This document shows positions 105 through 55,221 of a DNA stretch of 64,000 nt, piece after piece. Under the pieces are notes generated by a model, which ran no database searches, had not been told where the DNA came from, and worked only from the letters and a program-made list of their open reading frames with translations. Numbering within the stretch: position 1 is the first letter of the stretch; the number at the start of each line of letters is the position of its first letter. Both the position numbers and the translations under genes were made by a program. Source of the DNA: an uncultured Eubacteriales bacterium (GTDB lineage Bacteria; Bacillota; Clostridia; TANB77; UBA1234); NCBI GenBank assembly GCA_949283575.1, contig CASDSU010000021.1, forward strand, positions 1-64,000. The letters run 5' to 3'.

Positions 105-692
105 AAAAATTATGAGGTTAATAAAAATATCCCACCAGATGGAGGAGCAGTTTCTGAAAATGGCATAAAAGAAAGTGATTTAAATCTTCAAATAGCAGAA
201 AAACTAAAAGTAAAATTAGAAAATGAGAATTTTAAGGTTGTAATGACTAGAGAAAATGAGAACAATGTTGCAGATTTAGCAGTGCAAAATAGTAGTATTA
301 GAGAAATTAAAACTGCAGATTTGAATAATAGAGTAAAAATTGCTAATGAAAGTAATGCAGCATTACTTGTATCAATACATATGAATAAATTTAAAGATTC
401 AAAATATAGAGGGTGGCAGACTTTTTATTCTCAGAATTCAGAAAGAGGGAAGAAGTTAGCGGAGAGTATTCAGGAGTCTATAAAAAGAAATGTGCAAATT
501 GAGAATAATAGAACAGCATTGAAAATTGATGGAATAAAAATTATAGATAAATCTGTAATTCCTGCTGTTATAATTGAGTGTGGTTTTTTGTCAAATTATG
601 AAGAATGTGAATTGTTACAAGATGATGGGTATCAAGATAAATTGGCAGAAGGAATAAAAATAGGTATTGAAAAATATTTAAAGAGCATGTAA
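105..692 (+). pseudogene. N-acetylmuramoyl-L-alanine amidase (Amidase_3), N-terminus missing
   Basis: The frame encodes the body of a CwlD/LytC-type zinc amidase, which cleaves the lactyl-amide bond of peptidoglycan. Visible family blocks are PPDGGAVSENG with the downstream zinc-ligand glutamate (IKESDLN), the second-histidine block SIHMN, and the catalytic-glutamate block VIIECGFLSN. The N-terminal block with the first zinc histidine (normally D-x-GHGG) is missing. In its place the reading frame runs back into the recombinase tail at about position 84-105 without a start codon. An internal ATG at 243 exists but would drop a zinc ligand. It is best read as a 5'-truncated remnant created at the recombinase junction. 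Confidence 0.7.
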
Positions 693-1091
693 ATAAGCCC
701 AGCATATTTTCTCATACAGAGATGAGTATTCAGTGTTGCAAAGTTGATTCGTTTCGCCAGATGCGTGCTTTTTTAGCAGTTCGTGAATGATATTCTGGTT
801 CAAATAGAAGAGTGCGGTTGCAGTGTCACAGTACAGCTCATCATTCGTCAGCACTCGATGATAGGATTTTTGAGATGCATCCTGATTTTCATAAGTAAAG
901 CTGAGTACCAAATGAGAGTGTTCATCAATCTCAAGCTGTAATTCGCATCCGGTTTTTTCCTGAAAATTGTTCATCAGTTTCCTGAGATCTCCAAATTCTT
1001 CTTCAGTAGCGAAAGCGCTGGAGAACGAGTAGAGGGAGAGAACCATACCCAGAAGGGTGGATACCAGAATCTGAATCATACGCTTAGACAT
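678..1091 (-). CDS. Secreted protein of unknown function with structured mRNA leader
   Basis: A 137-residue protein. It starts at an ATG preceded by AAAGGAG and has a clear signal peptide: MSKRM followed by a hydrophobic stretch ending in SSAFA. The mature part is hydrophilic and has three cysteines, with no family that I recognise. Base composition is distinctly more G+C-rich than the flanking amidase and TraX genes. The last five codons overlap the amidase end, so its natural 3' end and terminator may be lost. Its 5' leader (1098-1206) is a homologue of the leader of the gene at 2021-2189, and both proteins begin with MSK and a signal peptide. The two are probably members of one family, with the TraX-type gene lying between them. 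Confidence 0.6.
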   Translation of the reverse strand: MSKRMIQILVSTLLGMVLSLYSFSSAFATEEEFGDLRKLMNNFQEKTGCELQLEIDEHSHLVLSFTYENQDASQKSYHRVLTNDELYCDTATALFYLNQNIIHELLKKHASGETNQLCNTEYSSLYEKICWAYLHAL

Positions 1092-1097
1092 AAAAAA

Positions 1098-1206
1098 ACT
1101 CCTTTCTTTGGTTCGACTGAACTAAGCTTTGGTTGCAAGAATAAATCTTACATACCACAGAAATGATCGATGTGAGTCAGTCAATCCCACATAATTTTTC
1201 TGTATG
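1098..1206 (-). promoter_or_regulatory. Structured leader RNA, copy A (hairpin with possible pseudoknot)
   Basis: On the minus strand a long hairpin lies at 1206-1151. Its outer stem is ACAGAAA/TTTCTGT closed by CAT/ATG, and its inner stem is ATGTG/CACAT. The loop contains GATTGACTGACT. Downstream, just before the AAAGGAG ribosome site, the sequence GTTCAGTC can pair its TCAGTC with the loop GACTGA. Copy B (2199-2304) keeps the loop and the downstream TCAGTC but changes both sides of each stem. This organisation resembles a translational riboswitch or other cis-regulator. No ligand can be inferred. Confidence 0.6.
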
Positions 1207-1259
1207 TTTATGAGATATTCAAAAACATAATTATTATAGCATGCATTTTTTCTATTATA

Positions 1260-1911
1260 TCAACTGATTAGCGATATCATGTAAGTTATGGCTAACATGT
1301 GTAAAGGATAAAAAGCGTAAAACAGATATTTAGCATTTTTTCCTTTTTTTTCGTTATATAAGCAAATAGGAATTATAGCACATATAGCTGGAATATTAAA
1401 AACGCTATTACTTATATAGCAGTAAAATATTAATAATATTGCATATCCAATAGAATAAAATAGCTTTGAGTTTTTAAATACGTAGAAGATAATAATTGAT
1501 AAAAATCCGTAAAAAGTATAATCCATTGGAATAATTGTAGAAACGCTAAACAAAATAAGCAAAAGTGGTATTTTTATAGCAGGATGTTTAACTTTATCAA
1601 TTACATATAATCCTAATAATCCAGTTGTCAAAGTAGCACCTACATTAAGTCTAAATGCACTTCCTGGTGCAGCTGCTTTCATAAATAAATCATATGGTAT
1701 CTGCGAAATTATTGTAAATATAAGCATTCTAATAATGTATTTTTCCTTACTTTTTGTGTGTGAGAAACCATTAGCGACTTGAAAAGCAAAAATCGGGAAG
1801 GCAAATCTTCCGAATTTGCCTTAAAATTGCATATTCTTTAAATATTCCAAAACCAATATGGTCAATAAACATCGTGATAATTGCTAAAATTTTCAATCCA
1901 AATGAAGTCAT
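1260..1911 (-). CDS. TraX-family membrane protein, frame broken at a CGG codon
   Basis: The gene starts at ATG 1911 with MTSFGLKILAIITMFIDHIG, the typical TraX (acyltransferase-like, multi-pass membrane) N-terminus. After LRQI the frame reads CGG (1812-1810) and would stop 10 codons later. Skipping the C gives GGA AGA TTT and continues as GRFAFPIFAFQVANGF and on to FYPLHMLAITYM, with no further interruption to the TAA at 1260. About seven membrane segments are evident in the combined product. All family-typical blocks are present, so this is either a gene needing +1 frameshifting or a very recent frameshift. The gene is flanked by two paralogous secreted-protein genes. Confidence 0.65.
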
Positions 1912-1972
1912 TTGTCATTCGCCTCCTGACAAACATTTTAGCATTTGTTTATAAACAAAAAAAGTTATTTGA

Positions 1973-2009
1973 CAAAAAAAGAAGGATACCTGTGTGCACA
2001 GATATCCTT
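1973..2009 (-). terminator. Intrinsic terminator of the secreted-protein gene
   Basis: A strong hairpin (AAGGATATCTGTG/CACAGGTATCCTT on the minus strand, two-base loop) is followed by TTCTTTTTTT. It lies just downstream of the TGA at 2021, which shows that the true reading frame of the gene ends at 2021 and not beyond the hairpin. Confidence 0.85.
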
Positions 2010-2020
2010 TTTGCTGTTGT

Positions 2021-2189
2021 TCAGTTGATCTGAGAAAGGTTTTTGTACATCTCCAAAAGTTCGTCGTAGACATCGCCGTGAACAAGAAGAAAGATGTTCA
2101 ACTTCCTGCGCAAAGGCAGCAGTAAAAATGGACACCACCAGAATCAGTACTAGGGAAAACCACCAGATAGATTTCGAATGCTTAGACAT
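2021..2189 (-). pseudogene. Small secreted protein, paralogue of 678-1091, frameshifted
   Basis: It starts with ATG after AAAGGGG and encodes a signal peptide (MSKHSKSIWW, hydrophobic core, FTAAFAQ). After QEV the start frame runs through the terminator. The frame one base further on reads NIFLLVHGDVYDELLEMYKN and then a TGA at 2021-2023, directly before the terminator. A single extra base near position 2095, or a frameshift, is therefore needed. The intact product would be about 55 residues. The leader is homologous to that of 678-1091. Function is unknown. No CGG codon is involved here, unlike the TraX neighbour. Confidence 0.55.
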
Positions 2190-2198
2190 TTAGTCTAG

Positions 2199-2304
2199 CC
2201 CCTTTCTTATGGTTGACTGAACAAGCTTTTAGTTTGCAGAAAAAATTTGCATACCGCAGGGAACATTGAGTTGAGTCAGTCGATCTCAAAAAAGTTCCTG
2301 CATG
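2199..2304 (-). promoter_or_regulatory. Structured leader RNA, copy B
   Basis: This is a homologue of the leader at 1098-1206. The hairpin at 2304-2250 has an outer stem GCAGGAAC/GTTCCCTGC with one bulged base and an inner stem TTGAG/CTCAA, so both stems changed on both sides relative to copy A. The loop GATCGACTGACT and the downstream TCAGTCAACC, which can pair with GACTGA of the loop, are conserved. It lies directly upstream of the ribosome site AAAGGGG of the gene at 2189. Confidence 0.6.
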
Positions 2305-2381
2305 CTTTTAAAACATAACAAAACAGTTTACTTTTGGCGATTTTTGGTATATTATTATGTGGTTAAAGGAGGGCTTATATA

Positions 2382-7556: not shown

Positions 7557-9125
7557 ATTTTTAAAAAATTTAGTATATTATTAATTATTACGATGTTACT
7601 TTCAATGGGTGTTATTTTTGCATCTACAAATCAAGCTTATTATGACATTGTTTTAAATGATGATGTTACAACTGTAAATGGAGAGGTAATGTCTGAAGAT
7701 TCTACAAGTTATATTTATTTGTCACAGAATATGAATAATGGAGGAACAAGCAAAGAAGCTCTTGAAGCAAACATAAAAGTTGATGACGTGGTTAATATAA
7801 AAGCTCCGGGTACTTATAGATTTACTGGTTCTCTTTCAAGTGGACAAATTGCAATAGATACAAACGTTATAAATGGTGATGTTGAAATTGTGTTAGCTGG
7901 TGCAAGTATTACATGTAAAGATGGTCCAGCAATTGTTGCGTATAACATCAATACAAAGGCTGCTGATAATTGCAATGTAATTATTAAAACTGAAAAAGGT
8001 ACAGAAAGTTATGTTTATGGAACTAGAGTGAAAACTAGCGTAATAGGATGGACTGATCAAGAAAAGATTGTCTACAACATTGAAAAAGGTACTAATGATG
8101 AGGGGCAATATTTTGAACAATATAAGTATGACGGTGCAATTAGTTCTGATATTACTTTAACTTTTGAAGGCGAAGGTACTTTGAAATTTGAATCAGGAAG
8201 AGAAGGTATTGAAGTTAAAGGTGATGTTATCATTAATAGCGGTAATTATATTTTCAATACAGATGAAGATGGAATTAATGCTTGCTTAGATCGTGAAAGT
8301 ATTATTGAAATCAACGGTGGTAACATTTTGGTTGAAACCAATAAAGATGGTCCTCAAGGTGATGGAATAGATTCAAATGGGTATTTGTATATTAATGGTG
8401 GTAATGTATTTTCATTTGCTAATCCAACTACAGGCGACAGTGGAATAGATTCTGATTTAGGAATTTTTATTAATGGTGGTAATGTAGTTGCCACAGGTAA
8501 TATGTATGACATGATTGAAACTGAATCAAAACAAGATTTTATTTTGATTCCATTTAACGAAAAGATTACAGAAGGAACATTAGTAACTGTAGTAAATGAA
8601 AAAGATGAACCTGTTATTGCTTTTGAAACAGAAAGAGATTATACAATTTTGACAATTAGCAATCCCGAATTAAGAAGAGGAACTTATTCTATTTATAAAG
8701 GTGGAACAATTGAGGGAGAGTCAACAAACGGATTGTATTCAAATATAACATCTTATTCAAAGGGAGAAAAAATTAATGTAACAGTATATGCAAAAGAAGA
8801 TGAATATAGGGGAAGAGGACCTGGTGATGGCATGATGATGCCAAATAATATGAACAATAACAAATTAAATGTTGGACTAGTAGTTATTCTTGGCGTTGTT
8901 GCTATTGTTTGTTTGGGAATCGCTCTAATATTTATAAAGAAAGAAACAGGAAGAATAGCAAATTTATTTTTAGGTATAATTGTCGGTGGAGCAATAGTTG
9001 CGATTATATTTATGTTTTCAAATAATGCGAGTATGAATAATCAATTTGATATGCTTAGAGGGGATAGAAATTGGAATGATTTTTCTGGCGAAAGACCATT
9101 AATGAATCAAAATCAACGATTTTAG
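7557..9125 (+). CDS. Cthe_2159-type carbohydrate-binding beta-helix membrane protein
   Basis: The protein resembles the Cthe_2159 family of polysaccharide-binding right-handed beta-helices. Repeating rungs such as GIEVKGDVIINSGNYIF, INGGNILVE and GDGIDSNGYLYINGGN are seen from about residue 190 to 310. Two C-terminal hydrophobic segments (VGLVVILGVVAIVCLGIALI and LFLGIIVGGAIVAIIFMF) anchor it, followed by an Asn/Arg-rich tail. No ATG sits at the expected place. The AGGAGGA ribosome site is followed by an in-frame ATT (7557) opening IFKKFSILLII, which would complete a signal peptide. The first ATG, at 7593, would shorten that peptide. An ATT start or a mutated start codon is likely. Confidence 0.8.
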   Translation: MFKKFSILLIITMLLSMGVIFASTNQAYYDIVLNDDVTTVNGEVMSEDSTSYIYLSQNMNNGGTSKEALEANIKVDDVVNIKAPGTYRFTGSLSSGQIAIDTNVINGDVEIVLAGASITCKDGPAIVAYNINTKAADNCNVIIKTEKGTESYVYGTRVKTSVIGWTDQEKIVYNIEKGTNDEGQYFEQYKYDGAISSDITLTFEGEGTLKFESGREGIEVKGDVIINSGNYIFNTDEDGINACLDRESIIEINGGNILVETNKDGPQGDGIDSNGYLYINGGNVFSFANPTTGDSGIDSDLGIFINGGNVVATGNMYDMIETESKQDFILIPFNEKITEGTLVTVVNEKDEPVIAFETERDYTILTISNPELRRGTYSIYKGGTIEGESTNGLYSNITSYSKGEKINVTVYAKEDEYRGRGPGDGMMMPNNMNNNKLNVGLVVILGVVAIVCLGIALIFIKKETGRIANLFLGIIVGGAIVAIIFMFSNNASMNNQFDMLRGDRNWNDFSGERPLMNQNQRF

Positions 9126-9204: not shown

Positions 9205-9228
9205 CACTGCATAAGAAGCAGTGGATAC

Positions 9229-9737
9229 TCATTCGTAATCTTCTTTACAGGCAGCATCGATGAAAAAAAGATCAACACCAGCGTCTTCGCAAAGTCGCTG
9301 GAAGCAACGTTCTTCAACCTCGTCTTCTTCAGTGTACTTACACTCGTAGGCATGGGCTTGTTCGTACTCAATCCTCTCATTGTAGTGAGGGTCGTTCTTG
9401 ATTTTCTCATAGATTTCACGTCCCCATGAAGTTTCGCGTATTTTTCCATTGTACGTGAGTCCATTGAGAACGTGGATATCTGCTGTAGTGCAAAGAATAG
9501 ATGCCGCTTTCTGGCAAATATTCTCATTGTAAGATAGCGTACACCGAAGAACCTCATCTTTCTTTCTAGCAAAGAGAATCTGTACTTTTTCGCAGATTCC
9601 CAGATTTTCAGCCAGATTATTCCATGCAAACCAGCATATTGTTCTTCTTCGGAAAGAGGCTGTTTTGCCACATACTGTTCGATCTCTGCGGTAGGTGCTT
9701 GGTAAAGGAACATTTCGAACTTTTTCATTTCCATCAT
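9229..9737 (-). pseudogene. Unknown high-G+C gene with a one-base frameshift
   Basis: It starts at ATGATG 9737 after AAAAAGGAG and reads MMEMKKFEMFLYQAPTAEIE to about residue 35 (SEEEQYA). There the start frame becomes implausible. The alternative frame reads WFAWNNLAENLGICEKVQIL, then QKAASILCTTADIHVLNG, and ends EDAGVDLFFIDAACKEDYE at TGA 9229, just before the terminator. One base, probably a T in a GCTTGG context, is missing near 9635. The restored product is about 170 residues, acidic and cysteine-containing, and I do not recognise it. G+C is clearly higher than in the beta-helix gene on one side and addB beyond the block. Confidence 0.55.
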
Positions 9738-9861
9738 CGTTTTACTCCTTTTTGAGTCTTCATCGCCATTTATCATGACGATTACAGGAAATGATTCTTA
9801 AATAGTATTTAAAAGAACACTATCATACCAATTCGGAGTTACAAAAAAATTATACTATCAT

Positions 9862-9955: not shown

Positions 9956-10921
9956 GTGGGGAAAAAGCAGAAGTATACCCCTCTCAGGCTGGTTGATGAA
10001 CACAGCCGGGCAATTCGTGAGTTTGAAAAAGCGCGAGCTTTGAGAACAATCGAAGGTGCTGAAGATGAAGTTGGTGCAGCTGTTGAATACGCGGTTACGC
10101 GGATTTACGAGAAGAATGGCATCAATGGTCGCAAACTTGGTGAGAAAGAGAAATATAGTCTCATGTGCCAAAGCTATGATTACGCAATCGCTACGGTGGT
10201 TTCTGCGTACTGGAGCAGGTGCAAACAAGTCTATACCTTCTCACGTGATTTCTACGAGATGCTTCTAGATATGGATGATTTCGAAATCGGATGGTCGCTT
10301 TTTGACTATTTGCCTTACGAAGCATTTTATCTTGAGCTTCTGGATCACAAGGAAATTGATGGTGTGCTTGTGAAGTACACTAAGGGACCGAAGCGTTCTA
10401 TCCTTTATACTATCTGTGGTAAAGAGGGTGGAATGGTTAGCATTAACAGTGGTATTGTCGATCCTCGCGAAAATCTCAGTTACAAGAGTTTTTTCGAAAC
10501 GGAAGTCTACTGCTCAAATGCTGACATAACTGCTCCATATGTAGTGCTTGTAAAGCAAGTACTTGCTTTTACACTTCAAGCGTGCATGTACCTGTGTGCA
10601 AAAAATGCGGATATCGAAGAGAATCCGCTGCAGAAGAAGATTTATACGCCTTCAAAGACTATCAGAAACAGGTTTTCTGAAATTCGTAAGTGGGATGTTG
10701 GCGTGCGAGTTGTGAAGGAACACAAAGCTGCGCAAAGCACTGCGACCGATACTGTCAACGCTCCTGACATGCTTCGGAAGAGACCACGTCAGCATTGGCG
10801 CAAGGCCCATTGGCATACTTATTGGGTAGGCAAGGGGCGCGAGCGCAGAGAACTTAAGTTCATTGCTCCGGTGTTGGTAAATGACAATGGTGATGAGACG
10901 CCGGTAGTTGTTCACCAGTAA
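9956..10921 (+). CDS. AcrVA2-like protein (putative anti-Cas12a family)
   Basis: A 321-residue protein is close to the length I recall for AcrVA2 (about 322), the phage/plasmid inhibitor that binds nascent Cas12a and blocks its production. The C-terminal block RPRQHWRKAHWHTYW, followed by a Gly-Lys-Gly loop and FIAPVLVN, has the same arrangement as my recollection of the AcrVA2 C-terminus (R-P-H, H-W-H-x-Y-W, then PAVFVN). Resemblance over the first 250 residues is weak. The start is GTG at 9956 behind AAAGGA. Unlike the AT-rich host genes it uses CGG as a sense codon (10007, 10100, 10775). No Cas gene or CRISPR array is in the window. Proteins sharing only the C-terminal domain may have other roles. 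Confidence 0.55.
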   Translation: MGKKQKYTPLRLVDEHSRAIREFEKARALRTIEGAEDEVGAAVEYAVTRIYEKNGINGRKLGEKEKYSLMCQSYDYAIATVVSAYWSRCKQVYTFSRDFYEMLLDMDDFEIGWSLFDYLPYEAFYLELLDHKEIDGVLVKYTKGPKRSILYTICGKEGGMVSINSGIVDPRENLSYKSFFETEVYCSNADITAPYVVLVKQVLAFTLQACMYLCAKNADIEENPLQKKIYTPSKTIRNRFSEIRKWDVGVRVVKEHKAAQSTATDTVNAPDMLRKRPRQHWRKAHWHTYWVGKGRERRELKFIAPVLVNDNGDETPVVVHQ

Positions 10922-10994: not shown

Positions 10995-12227
10995 TTATTT
11001 CGTACCTTTCTTTTTAGGAATCGTAAGACGGAGCGGATAACGGTAGGTTACACCTTGAGTGGGATGAACAGCGAAAAGTTTCTGAATGGGGTAGTTTGCG
11101 GTGACAAGCCCTTTCATAGAGTAAAGGCTTCCGCCAGGCCAACAGCCATTGACGAACTTTTCAGTAGTAACACCAGAAAGTTCAGAAGGCACATGGAAGT
11201 GACCAAGTTCAAGGTAGTTGTAGCTTAAGCCCATGAGTTCCAAAAGTTCACGGTAGTTCTTTGCAGCACGGTCGATACCGTAGTAGGGAATTCCCTGCCA
11301 AGAGCGAATATCGTCACCATGGAACATCAGGAAATTGAAGCCGTAAATCTTGTCGATTTGCCACCAGGATTTCGTAATCTGCCAGGTAATTCGGTCGTAG
11401 TTTTTGAGTTCAGATTCCATCCATTTGTACACGATGTAGTCCCAGCTGACGTAGTGCAAGTTTTCACCCTTGCTACCGATGCGACCATGGTTACCAGGAA
11501 CCGCAACAACGTGGATTTTGTCGAACAAATGAAGAGCCTTAAGTAAAAAATCACAAAGCAAATCTTTGACACCGATTGCCTGTTCAGTGATTTCGCGATC
11601 GATTTGACGAGTTTGTCCTTTAAAGATGTCGTAGCCTTCGACAATGTCACCAATAAGATGAACATGCAACGAAGAGATAGGGGCAACTTGTTTGTGGCGA
11701 GTAACGATTTCTTCGAGACCTTTGTAAAGCTGTACGAACTGCTTTTCGAGAATGTCCCAATTGTACTCATTAAGACCACCACTAGCTTCGTCGGAGATAT
11801 AGGTACCAGCCTGAATATCCGAAATCATAAGCACGATGGTTTCTTCAGAGTAGTTGCGGTCGACGTTAACCTTAAAAGGCTTGATGTCGCGCAGGGGACG
11901 ATTCTTGATGATATCTTTAATAGAGTCGACAATCATGTCAGTAACGGCAATCTTGGTGAGAAGCTTTTTGTCACGCCTTGCGGCTTCAAAAGAAATGATG
12001 CTAGTACGACGGTCAGAAACTTCATCCTCAAAAGTCTTGGGCGGCGGAGGATATTCTTCACGCAAAAAACGTTTTACAGTTCGTGCAGAAGATTCCTTGC
12101 CTTTAAAATTCGGTCCATATTGTTCGTAAACTTTAGAAATGATTTCCTCTTCAGTATGTCCCTCTTCATGAAGAATACGTGCAAACTCTCTCCAGGTAAT
12201 CGTGGGTTCAACATTCTGATTATTCAT
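10995..12227 (-). CDS. Phage-type calcineurin-like metallophosphoesterase with N-terminal HTH-like region
   Basis: A 410-residue protein. Residues 1-60 (TITWREFARILHEEGHTEEE ... SARTVKRFLREEY) look like a helix-turn-helix or terminase-small-subunit type module. The rest is a calcineurin-like phosphoesterase with the metal motifs in order: MISDIQAG (His replaced by Gln), LIGDIVEG, VPGNHGRIG, MFHGDDI and LGHFHVP. Such proteins occur in phages and conjugative elements and are often labelled DNA-repair exonucleases. The substrate is unknown. It has a strong ribosome site (AAGGAGGAAATCACC). It is convergent with the AcrVA2-like gene and of similar elevated G+C. Confidence 0.75.
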   Translation of the reverse strand: MNNQNVEPTITWREFARILHEEGHTEEEIISKVYEQYGPNFKGKESSARTVKRFLREEYPPPPKTFEDEVSDRRTSIISFEAARRDKKLLTKIAVTDMIVDSIKDIIKNRPLRDIKPFKVNVDRNYSEETIVLMISDIQAGTYISDEASGGLNEYNWDILEKQFVQLYKGLEEIVTRHKQVAPISSLHVHLIGDIVEGYDIFKGQTRQIDREITEQAIGVKDLLCDFLLKALHLFDKIHVVAVPGNHGRIGSKGENLHYVSWDYIVYKWMESELKNYDRITWQITKSWWQIDKIYGFNFLMFHGDDIRSWQGIPYYGIDRAAKNYRELLELMGLSYNYLELGHFHVPSELSGVTTEKFVNGCWPGGSLYSMKGLVTANYPIQKLFAVHPTQGVTYRYPLRLTIPKKKGTK

Positions 12228-53455: not shown

Positions 53456-54127
53456 TTATTCAATTTTCGTAAAGCTCGAAACAGATACTTCGTAGGCAGT
53501 TCTGGTTTCTTCTTCTCCAGAATCACCCAAACGCTTGGTATATTCTCGGCTCTGAAATCTTCCTTCAAGCCTTATCTTTTCACCCATCTGAAGCTTGAAT
53601 GCATTCTGTGCAATTCTTCCCCACGTAATACAGGGAATGAAGTCACACTTTCCGAATCTACGATTTACAACAATCTTAACTTCAGTAATCTCTCTGCCAA
53701 AGGGTGTAACCCTGTAGACAGTGGGCTTACAGATGTAGCCTTCCAGAAACACCTTGTTATAATCACTCTGCGGATCTGTCTCGCCATTACCTTCTTCATT
53801 CACCTTTATGGACGTTGCGAACACAAACAGTTCGAGCATCCCCTTACCATTTTCAAGAATCTTGTTATGAGAACGGAATTGCCCCTCAACTTCAACACGC
53901 TTTCCTTTCAGCGTATGAGCCTTGATGTCACTGAGCAGGAACTCAGATATGATTACTGGTACAAAGTCTTCAGTGCCACTCAGTCTCGCAACCCTCACTC
54001 TGTTTTTGTAAAAGTTCTCGCATGCAAAATTGTGGCTGTATTCGAAATTTGATTCGAGAACACCGCTCAGCTGCACATTATTGAAACAAGCCTCATGATT
54101 CGTTGCAACATACCGTCTCTCTGTCAT
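53456..54127 (-). CDS. SSB-like protein with two OB-fold regions
   Basis: A 223-residue protein. The second half has the bacterial SSB pattern (NKVFLEGYICKPTVYRVTPF, REITEVKIVVNRRFGKCDFI, CITWGRIAQNAFKLQMGEKI, RLEGRFQSREYTK). The first half looks like a second diverged OB fold (NNVQLSGVLESNFEYSHNFA, LKGKRVEVEGQFRSH). No acidic SSB tail is present. Single-chain tandem SSBs are typical of clostridial conjugative elements and phages. It lies 15 bases downstream of the repeat-protein gene and uses in-frame CGG at codon 5. Confidence 0.8.
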   Translation of the reverse strand: MTERRYVATNHEACFNNVQLSGVLESNFEYSHNFACENFYKNRVRVARLSGTEDFVPVIISEFLLSDIKAHTLKGKRVEVEGQFRSHNKILENGKGMLELFVFATSIKVNEEGNGETDPQSDYNKVFLEGYICKPTVYRVTPFGREITEVKIVVNRRFGKCDFIPCITWGRIAQNAFKLQMGEKIRLEGRFQSREYTKRLGDSGEEETRTAYEVSVSSFTKIE

Positions 54128-54142
54128 TATACATTTCCTCCT

Positions 54143-55156
54143 TTAGTGCTTGTCCTTGAAATTAGAAAAAGTTAATGCTTTCATGAGAAGAATCCTCTTT
54201 TCAAGCATTTTGAAACGTGAAAAACTAGGATCCGCATATTCTTTAACAGGCAAATTAAGTTCGAGTCCAGCTCGAATTTCTCGCATCTGTAAGGCGTTGA
54301 ATTTAGGATTGGCATAAAAGCTTACATCAACCTTTTTGACAAGTCCCATTCTCAGCTGCTGCATCTGGCTTGCATTATATCCCTTACTATACACGCTAGT
54401 ATCGACACCAAGTTCCAAACCAATACGAAGTTCACGCATCTGTGCATGCGTATAGAGTTCGGGTTTGGCATAGATACTAATATCCACACCAGACTTAAGC
54501 CCTCTCATGATTTCATACTGCTGACACTTATTACAATCATCCCATGATTCACGAATCGCCCGCATGCTCATATAAGGATATGCAGGATTCAAAATGAGCG
54601 TTACATCAAACCCTTCAACCATACCAAATCTGATTTCACGCATTTGTTCACTCGTGTATCTAATGTCAGCATATACGCTTACGTCAAGCCCTTCTTGCAT
54701 ACCGTGCCTAATTTCACGCATTTGATACCTTCCAAATTTAGGTGTAACATATTGAGTAATATCAACACCCTTTTCGAGTCCTCTGCGAATTTGCTCCATC
54801 TGATGATAATGGTACTTATTATTCGCATAAATGCTGATATCCAAGCCTTTATTTAAACCAAGTGCAAGTTGTGACATCTGTTTTGCACTAAACTCAGGCT
54901 TTGCAAATGGTGTTGGATCGCCACAGTACAAACTATGTTTTCTGATTTTCATCATTTGATCTGCATCAAACTCAGGTCTCGCAAACACATGCAGGTAAGG
55001 ATTCTTTTCTTCCAATCCCAACCTTATTTCTTTCATTTGCCATTCGTCGTAATAAGTATGGGCATATACCGAAACATCTACACCCTTTTCCAGACCTTCC
55101 TCAATCTGCCTCCGTTGTCTTACGCTGAACTTTTCGAAATCAATATTTCCGTTCAT
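54143..55156 (-). CDS. Protein of tandem DVSVYA-type repeats
   Basis: Starts at ATG 55156 behind AAGGAGG (longest frame begins eight codons earlier). About 337 residues consist of 11-12 repeats of roughly 22-32 residues with consensus QM-x-x-I/L-R-x-G-L-E-x-G-V-D-V-S-x-Y-A-x-P-x-F/Y. Examples are QMREIRAGLELNLPVKEYAD and QMEQIRRGLEKGVDITQYVT. It has no signal or membrane segment. Such repeat proteins are common on clostridial conjugative elements and have no known activity. Co-transcribed with the SSB-like gene from a near-consensus promoter. Confidence 0.75.
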   Translation of the reverse strand: MNGNIDFEKFSVRQRRQIEEGLEKGVDVSVYAHTYYDEWQMKEIRLGLEEKNPYLHVFARPEFDADQMMKIRKHSLYCGDPTPFAKPEFSAKQMSQLALGLNKGLDISIYANNKYHYHQMEQIRRGLEKGVDITQYVTPKFGRYQMREIRHGMQEGLDVSVYADIRYTSEQMREIRFGMVEGFDVTLILNPAYPYMSMRAIRESWDDCNKCQQYEIMRGLKSGVDISIYAKPELYTHAQMRELRIGLELGVDTSVYSKGYNASQMQQLRMGLVKKVDVSFYANPKFNALQMREIRAGLELNLPVKEYADPSFSRFKMLEKRILLMKALTFSNFKDKH

Positions 55157-55221
55157 CTTCCTTTCCTCCTTATAGAACAAATTATTCCCTATAAATCAAC
55201 AACTTGTTTTTTACCGTATAG

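What the first reader, a model, noticed from the sequence alone, without database searches (positions are those of the whole stretch)
1098..2304. A pair of homologous leader RNAs with covarying stems, invariant loop and a possible pseudoknot
Leaders at 1098-1206 and 2199-2304 (both minus strand) share an outer stem that changed from ACAGAAA/TTTCTGT to GCAGGAAC/GTTCC(C)TGC, and an inner stem that changed from ATGTG/CACAT to TTGAG/CTCAA. The loop core GACTGACT and the downstream TCAGTC, which can pair with GACTGA of the loop, are invariant. The pairing partner ends about 12 bases before the ribosome site. Double-sided changes in two stems are evidence of a selected RNA structure. Both control signal-peptide-bearing small proteins. 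I know of no described riboswitch with this consensus.
Basis: partly seen in the sequence, partly recalled or inferred. Interest (0 to 1): 0.8.

Follow-up and report, generated by a model that had tools for sequence, protein, structure and literature searches.

The report
New pseudoknot leader before foreign genes
A folded RNA at the start of two small foreign-looking genes is real and previously uncatalogued: five more copies, with different sequence but the same folds and knot, sit in front of mostly unrelated foreign genes in close relatives, so it is probably a reusable control element for acquired genes.

Summary
Both leaders (structured part 1115-1229 and 2215-2316, minus strand) fold as described. 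Covariance-model and pattern searches found five more copies in three other genomes of the same family and in the window's own genome, seven in all. On the model-fitted alignment of the seven, 16 of 28 pairs change on both sides while still pairing, against 9.1 in shuffles and at most 6 in slid controls. The pseudoknot itself gains one compensatory change (GACUGA/UCAGUC to CACUGA/UCAGUG). I add a third hairpin (P3, directly after the first arm) and, less surely, a 5' hairpin (P0) at the predicted transcript start. Each copy lies behind a sigma70-type promoter, with the knot ending 10-17 nt before a Shine-Dalgarno. The genes behind are mostly unrelated, have high GC3 (0.35-0.66, native genes about 0.18) and mostly carry signal peptides. 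Orthologous leaders in two species (81% identical) precede unalignable genes. No Rfam family matches; no copy was found outside this one family. Most likely it is a new cis-acting leader family that sets translation (or mRNA lifetime) of single acquired genes. Any ligand, and any effect on expression, is untested.

The parts
1115..1229 (-). Leader RNA 1 (P0, P1, P2 with knot loop, P3, knot strand)
   Evidence: Sequence; fold z -3.5; model R3 87.7 bits
1204..1228 (-). P0 hairpin of leader 1: AUGUUU (1228-1223) / AAACAU (1209-1204), at the predicted transcript start
   Evidence: fold; joint chance of the P0 hairpins about 0.01-0.02
1157..1203 (-). P1 of leader 1: ACAGAAA (1203-1197) / UUUCUGU (1163-1157)
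1170..1192 (-). P2 of leader 1: AUGUGGG (1192-1186) / CUCACAU (1176-1170), loop AUUGACUGA with knot strand GACUGA (1182-1177)
1131..1156 (-). P3 of leader 1: GGU..UGUAAGA / UCUUGCA..ACC
1115..1120 (-). Knot partner UCAGUC of leader 1, ends 10 nt before the Shine-Dalgarno
1233..1263 (-). Promoter-like TTGATA-19-TATAAT of leader 1
   Evidence: Consensus match only
678..1091 (-). P1 protein, 137 aa with signal-peptide-like start, GC3 0.44
   Evidence: distantly related to P3 protein of the sister species (E 3e-5)
2215..2316 (-). Leader RNA 2, same architecture; knot loop GACUGA 2281-2276, partner UCAGUC 2220-2215
   Evidence: Sequence; model R3 78 bits
2256..2301 (-). P1 of leader 2: GCAGGAAC (2301-2294) / GUUC (2264-2261), bulged C, CUGC (2259-2256)
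2271..2289 (-). P2 of leader 2: UUGAG (2289-2285) / CUCAA (2275-2271), loop AUCGACUGA
1965..2189 (-). P2 protein, 74 aa with signal-peptide-like start; probably a decayed gene
   Evidence: unalignable with the 208-aa gene behind the orthologous leader in the sister species

Best explanation
This is a new family of structured 5' leader RNAs, about 105-145 nt, that acts in cis on the single gene behind it. A sigma70-type promoter starts the transcript about 20 nt before P1, so the RNA opens with a small hairpin (P0). The P1-P2 arm follows, then hairpin P3 with no linker. A short tail then pairs with the P2 loop, closing a pseudoknot stacked directly on P2. The knot ends 10-17 nt before the Shine-Dalgarno and 23-31 nt before the AUG, against the upstream edge of the initiating ribosome. 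I infer that forming or opening this fold sets translation initiation; there is no terminator in the leader. Promoter plus leader behave as a module placed before mostly unrelated, recently acquired genes. Shown: structure, covariation, position, modularity, foreign character of the genes. Inferred: transcription start, effect on translation, trigger.
For: Seven homologues in four genomes of one family, found with models R1-R3; with R3 the weakest member scores 45.8 bits, the next family hit 18, and nothing else in 385 genomes reaches E 0.3. Covariation: 16 of 28 pairs with changes on both sides, score 0.452 versus 0.177 in shuffles and at most 0.131 slid. Pseudoknot: C-G for G-C at its first pair in L081, GCUGA/UCAGU by wobble in L118. 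Fixed geometry: knot to Shine-Dalgarno 10-17 nt, to AUG 23-31 nt, in all seven; a promoter 23-29 nt before P1 in six of seven. Modularity: similarity between the two leaders of genome G028 runs from promoter to knot (79% over 128 nt) and stops there; orthologous leaders 2 and 3 are 81% identical, the genes behind unalignable. Genes behind: GC3 0.35-0.66 versus about 0.18.
Against: No expression or probing data. Predicted Shine-Dalgarno accessibility is hardly altered by forming the knot, so no classical sequestering switch is visible. Alignments were fitted to the models, which leans pair counts towards the structure, and R2 and R3 were trained on earlier hits. With R1 the fourth member scored no higher than a chance hit; its acceptance rests on knot, promoter and spacing, and on the later separation. 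P0 is only moderately supported. In the sister species the gene at leader 1's site has only a short leader, so the leader is dispensable there.
Confidence: 0.55

Rival explanations
1. A 5' stabiliser: P0 at the very 5' end and the compact knot protect foreign, codon-mismatched messages from 5'-to-3' decay (RNase J type), without sensing anything.
For: A hairpin lies at the predicted transcript start in most copies. There is no alternative fold at the ribosome site. Cargo genes are unrelated, so a common metabolic signal is unlikely. 5' stem-loops stabilise Bacillus messages: Hambraeus 2002 on aprE, listed in the review PMC3997798.
Against: A simple hairpin would do; it does not explain the conserved knot, the conserved RAAGC linker and the fixed distance to the ribosome site.
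Confidence: 0.2
2. A metabolite or ion riboswitch with unknown ligand acting on translation.
For: Compact pseudoknotted fold, conserved unpaired bases (RAAGC, GGYA) and a 5' leader position.
Against: The genes behind share no pathway; no alternative fold was seen; only one bacterial family has it; no Rfam match.
Confidence: 0.12
3. A DNA element: a recombination or landing site with inverted GACTGA/TCAGTC strands, comparable to integron attI/attC, at which foreign genes are exchanged.
For: The module boundary falls right after the knot strand (GTTCAGTS), and genes behind orthologous leaders differ.
Against: GTTCAGT does not fit the integron core GTTRRRY (own knowledge); there is one copy per gene and none at gene 3' ends; always the same orientation and spacing to the ribosome site; pairs vary through G-U on the transcribed strand (G-U is favoured by the model).
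Confidence: 0.08
4. A leftover from the donor element with no function in the present host.
For: Patchy presence (4 of 13 family genomes) and absence at the syntenic gene in the sister species.
Against: Compensatory changes in sequences that otherwise differ completely, and 81% identity of orthologous leaders while the genes behind decayed or were replaced.
Confidence: 0.05

Closest known systems
Downstream-peptide (glutamine-II) motif, RF01704, and glnA, RF01739
   Same: Pseudoknotted 5' leaders; Downstream-peptide precedes short orphan proteins of 17-100 aa (PMC2864571)
   Different: No match in Rfam searches up to E 1; different host phylum (cyanobacteria)
preQ1-type and other translational pseudoknot riboswitches
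   Same: Hairpin loop pairs with a strand just before the ribosome site
   Different: Here the knot ends 10-17 nt before the Shine-Dalgarno and does not include it; no pathway-linked genes
STAXI motif (RNA pseudoknots near mobile-DNA genes)
   Same: Pseudoknot linked to foreign DNA
   Different: STAXI is a pseudoknot repeated two or three times (PMC2864571); here a single, larger element with P1 and P3
Type III toxin-antitoxin RNAs (ToxI)
   Same: Pseudoknot RNA upstream of a small gene
   Different: No tandem repeats, no terminator between RNA and gene, no toxin family match
HK022 put antitermination RNAs
   Same: Structured RNA at the transcript start (own knowledge)
   Different: Single-gene units with their own terminators; the pseudoknot near the ribosome site points elsewhere

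Membership tests
Any Rfam 15 family | Score above the family's gathering threshold | tested here: not met
   Whole window at gathering: only RNase P; leaders at E up to 10 and five homologue loci at E up to 1: no credible match
Riboswitch | Conserved structured 5' leader with covariation | tested here: met
Riboswitch | Alternative folds that expose or hide the ribosome site or a terminator | tested here: inconclusive
   No terminator in the leader; Shine-Dalgarno accessibility similar with and without the knot; pseudoknot energetics not modelled
Riboswitch | Genes of a common pathway downstream | tested here: not met
   No Pfam, NCBIfam or PHROG assignment for the cargo proteins; at least three unrelated sequences
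Riboswitch | Direct ligand binding | not testable with these tools
   Needs biochemistry
Glutamine-II (Downstream-peptide) riboswitch | Match to RF01704 or RF01739 | tested here: not met
Type III toxin-antitoxin RNA | Tandem pseudoknot repeats before a ToxN-type gene | tested here: not met
   Single element per gene; no ToxN match
Integron attI/attC site | GTTRRRY core sites and attC at cassette 3' ends | tested here: not met
   Boundary reads GTTCAGTS; models find one site per gene only. Integrase not searched
5' mRNA stabiliser | Longer message half-life in cis | not testable with these tools
   Needs an experiment

The most novel reading that the evidence does not exclude
Promoter plus pseudoknot leader is a standing expression platform that one bacterial family keeps at chosen loci and behind which foreign genes are captured, tried and replaced, so the RNA outlives its genes: an integron-like division of labour without integron parts.
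Probability: 0.12. Interest if true: 0.8.

Novelty: new variant of a known kind. Interest (0 to 1): 0.58.

Why it matters
Structured leaders normally go with a pathway. This one goes with newly acquired, mostly secreted orphan proteins and is better kept than the genes behind it. If it controls them, it offers a direct handle on how AT-rich gut Clostridia express or tame incoming GC-richer genes, and a new pseudoknot fold with a ready set of seven natural variants for structure work.

Tried and rejected
Exact-pattern scans of viral contigs and of 85,000 species genomes: only the sister species RGIG4047 was real; other hits lie in unrelated sequence and lack the fold. Weak model hits L067, L069-L079, L082-L084, L112-L115 and L117 rejected as chance: no knot, no promoter and start codon at the right place, and nothing left with R3. 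G025:C37 blastn hit rejected (inside a replication-gene region). Plasmid and phage DNA and protein searches for leader and cargo: nothing. The structure model of the 208-aa cargo protein is too poor to use (pLDDT 45.7), though its second half reads helix-strands-helix. A competing GCAUGCUUU/AAAGCGUGC stem in leader 3 is not conserved. Leader peptide considered: no shared open frame.

Full report
OBSERVATION. The two leaders exist as described. Aligned, they share an outer stem, an inner stem, the loop core GACTGACT and the downstream TCAGTC. Folding agrees for leader 1 (z -3.5, 0 of 200 shuffles as good) and is weak for leader 2 (z -1.2). Two copies alone could not settle the matter.

MORE COPIES. 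A third copy lies at the syntenic place (between a TraX-type gene and lepA) in a same-genus genome, G025, which is Clostridia bacterium RGIG4047 from roe deer cecum. Other family members lack it at lepA. A covariance model of the three (R1) found a fourth in another genus (G028). R2 found a fifth in a third genus (G009), a sixth in G028 and a seventh elsewhere in the window's own genome. R3, built from all seven, separates them from everything else: members 97 to 45.8 bits, next hit in the family 18 bits, and no other hit at E up to 0.3 in 385 genomes of the order. Caveat: R2 and R3 were trained on earlier hits, and with R1 the fourth member (31.9 bits) was no better than a chance hit (32.3 bits). 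It was accepted because the unmodelled knot, the promoter and the start-codon spacing were all there.

STRUCTURE. Order 5' to 3': P0 hairpin, P1, P2 with loop (A/U)N1-2(G/C)ACUGA, P2 and P1 3' strands, P3 (GGY...RCY) with no linker, RAAGC linker, knot strand UCAGU(C/G) (hand alignment, model alignment). On the model-fitted alignment 88.9% of cells pair, 16 of 28 pairs have changes on both sides, and the covariation score is 0.452 against 0.177 in shuffles and 0.036-0.131 when slid. RNAalifold on the same alignment finds P1, P2 and P3 with 14 double-changed pairs of 18. The knot is mostly invariant, which by itself says nothing, but its first pair is G-C in three copies and C-G in one, and one copy keeps the core through G-U. 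Three copies do not form that first pair as aligned. P0 is supported only moderately (joint chance 0.01-0.02).

CONTEXT. In all seven the knot ends 10-17 nt before a Shine-Dalgarno and 23-31 nt before AUG. In leader 3 that AUG opens a two-codon frame (AUG AGA UGA); the 208-aa gene follows with its own ribosome site. Six of seven have a sigma70-type promoter 23-29 nt before P1. No leader holds a terminator. The genes behind are small (72-208 aa), have GC3 0.35-0.66 against about 0.18 for native genes, and have no Pfam, NCBIfam or PHROG assignment. Five have signal-peptide-like starts, two do not. The proteins behind leaders 1 and 3 are distantly related (E 3e-5); the others are not recognisably so. 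Native genes of the window use no CGG codon in 14,146 codons, while the foreign ones do, an independent sign of foreign origin.

MODULARITY. DNA similarity between leaders runs from the promoter to the end of the knot and stops. Leaders 2 and 3 are orthologous by position and 81% identical, but the genes behind cannot be aligned. At leader 1's site the sister species has a similar promoter, a short leader without the knot and another gene.

FUNCTION. The position at the upstream edge of the ribosome footprint, the absence of a terminator and the mostly unrelated cargo point to a cis-acting element of translation initiation, or less likely message stability. Forming the knot barely alters predicted Shine-Dalgarno accessibility, so a classical switch is not evident. 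This step is inference.

KNOWN FAMILIES. No Rfam 15 family fits. The nearest precedent in kind is the Downstream-peptide motif, a pseudoknotted leader of short orphan genes in cyanobacteria (PMC2864571), but there is no match to it. Distribution as searched is a single family within its order; metagenome collections could not be scanned.

VERDICT. A real, new structured leader RNA family with a solidly supported fold and a narrow host range; mechanism open.

Noticed in passing
window 1260-1910 (-), site at 1815; L062 about 8300-8960, site at 8853: The TraX-type gene needs the same +1 frameshift (ATT C GGA / ATT C GGT) in the window genome and in the sister species. Both sides are under strong purifying selection (dN/dS about 0.03 and 0.11, dS above 1), and the zero-frame codon at the site is CGG, which is absent from 14,146 native codons of the window: a candidate programmed frameshift at an unused codon.
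   Followed up: partly
window, native genes: CGG is never used in native genes of the window (0 of 14,146 codons) but is used in the GC-richer foreign genes; the genome may lack the matching tRNA. tRNAs of the whole genome were not examined.
   Followed up: partly
window 9207-9776 (-), 9956-10918 (+), 10998-12227 (-), 53459-54127 (-), 54146-55180 (-): Further single foreign genes with high GC3, some phage-type (SbcD-like exonuclease phrog_284, single-strand binding protein phrog_26861, phrog_6160), each with consensus promoter and own terminator, without the pseudoknot leader.
   Followed up: partly
window 54146-55180 (-): Protein made of about 26-residue repeats (QMREIRxGLExGxDVSxYAxPxF).
   Followed up: no
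L118 1341-1431: A 91-nt near-perfect inverted repeat lies just upstream of the seventh leader's promoter in the window's own genome.
   Followed up: no
L062 7592-8200 (-): At leader 1's syntenic site the sister species has a different secreted gene with a similar promoter but only a short hairpin leader, a natural variant lacking the knot.
   Followed up: partly
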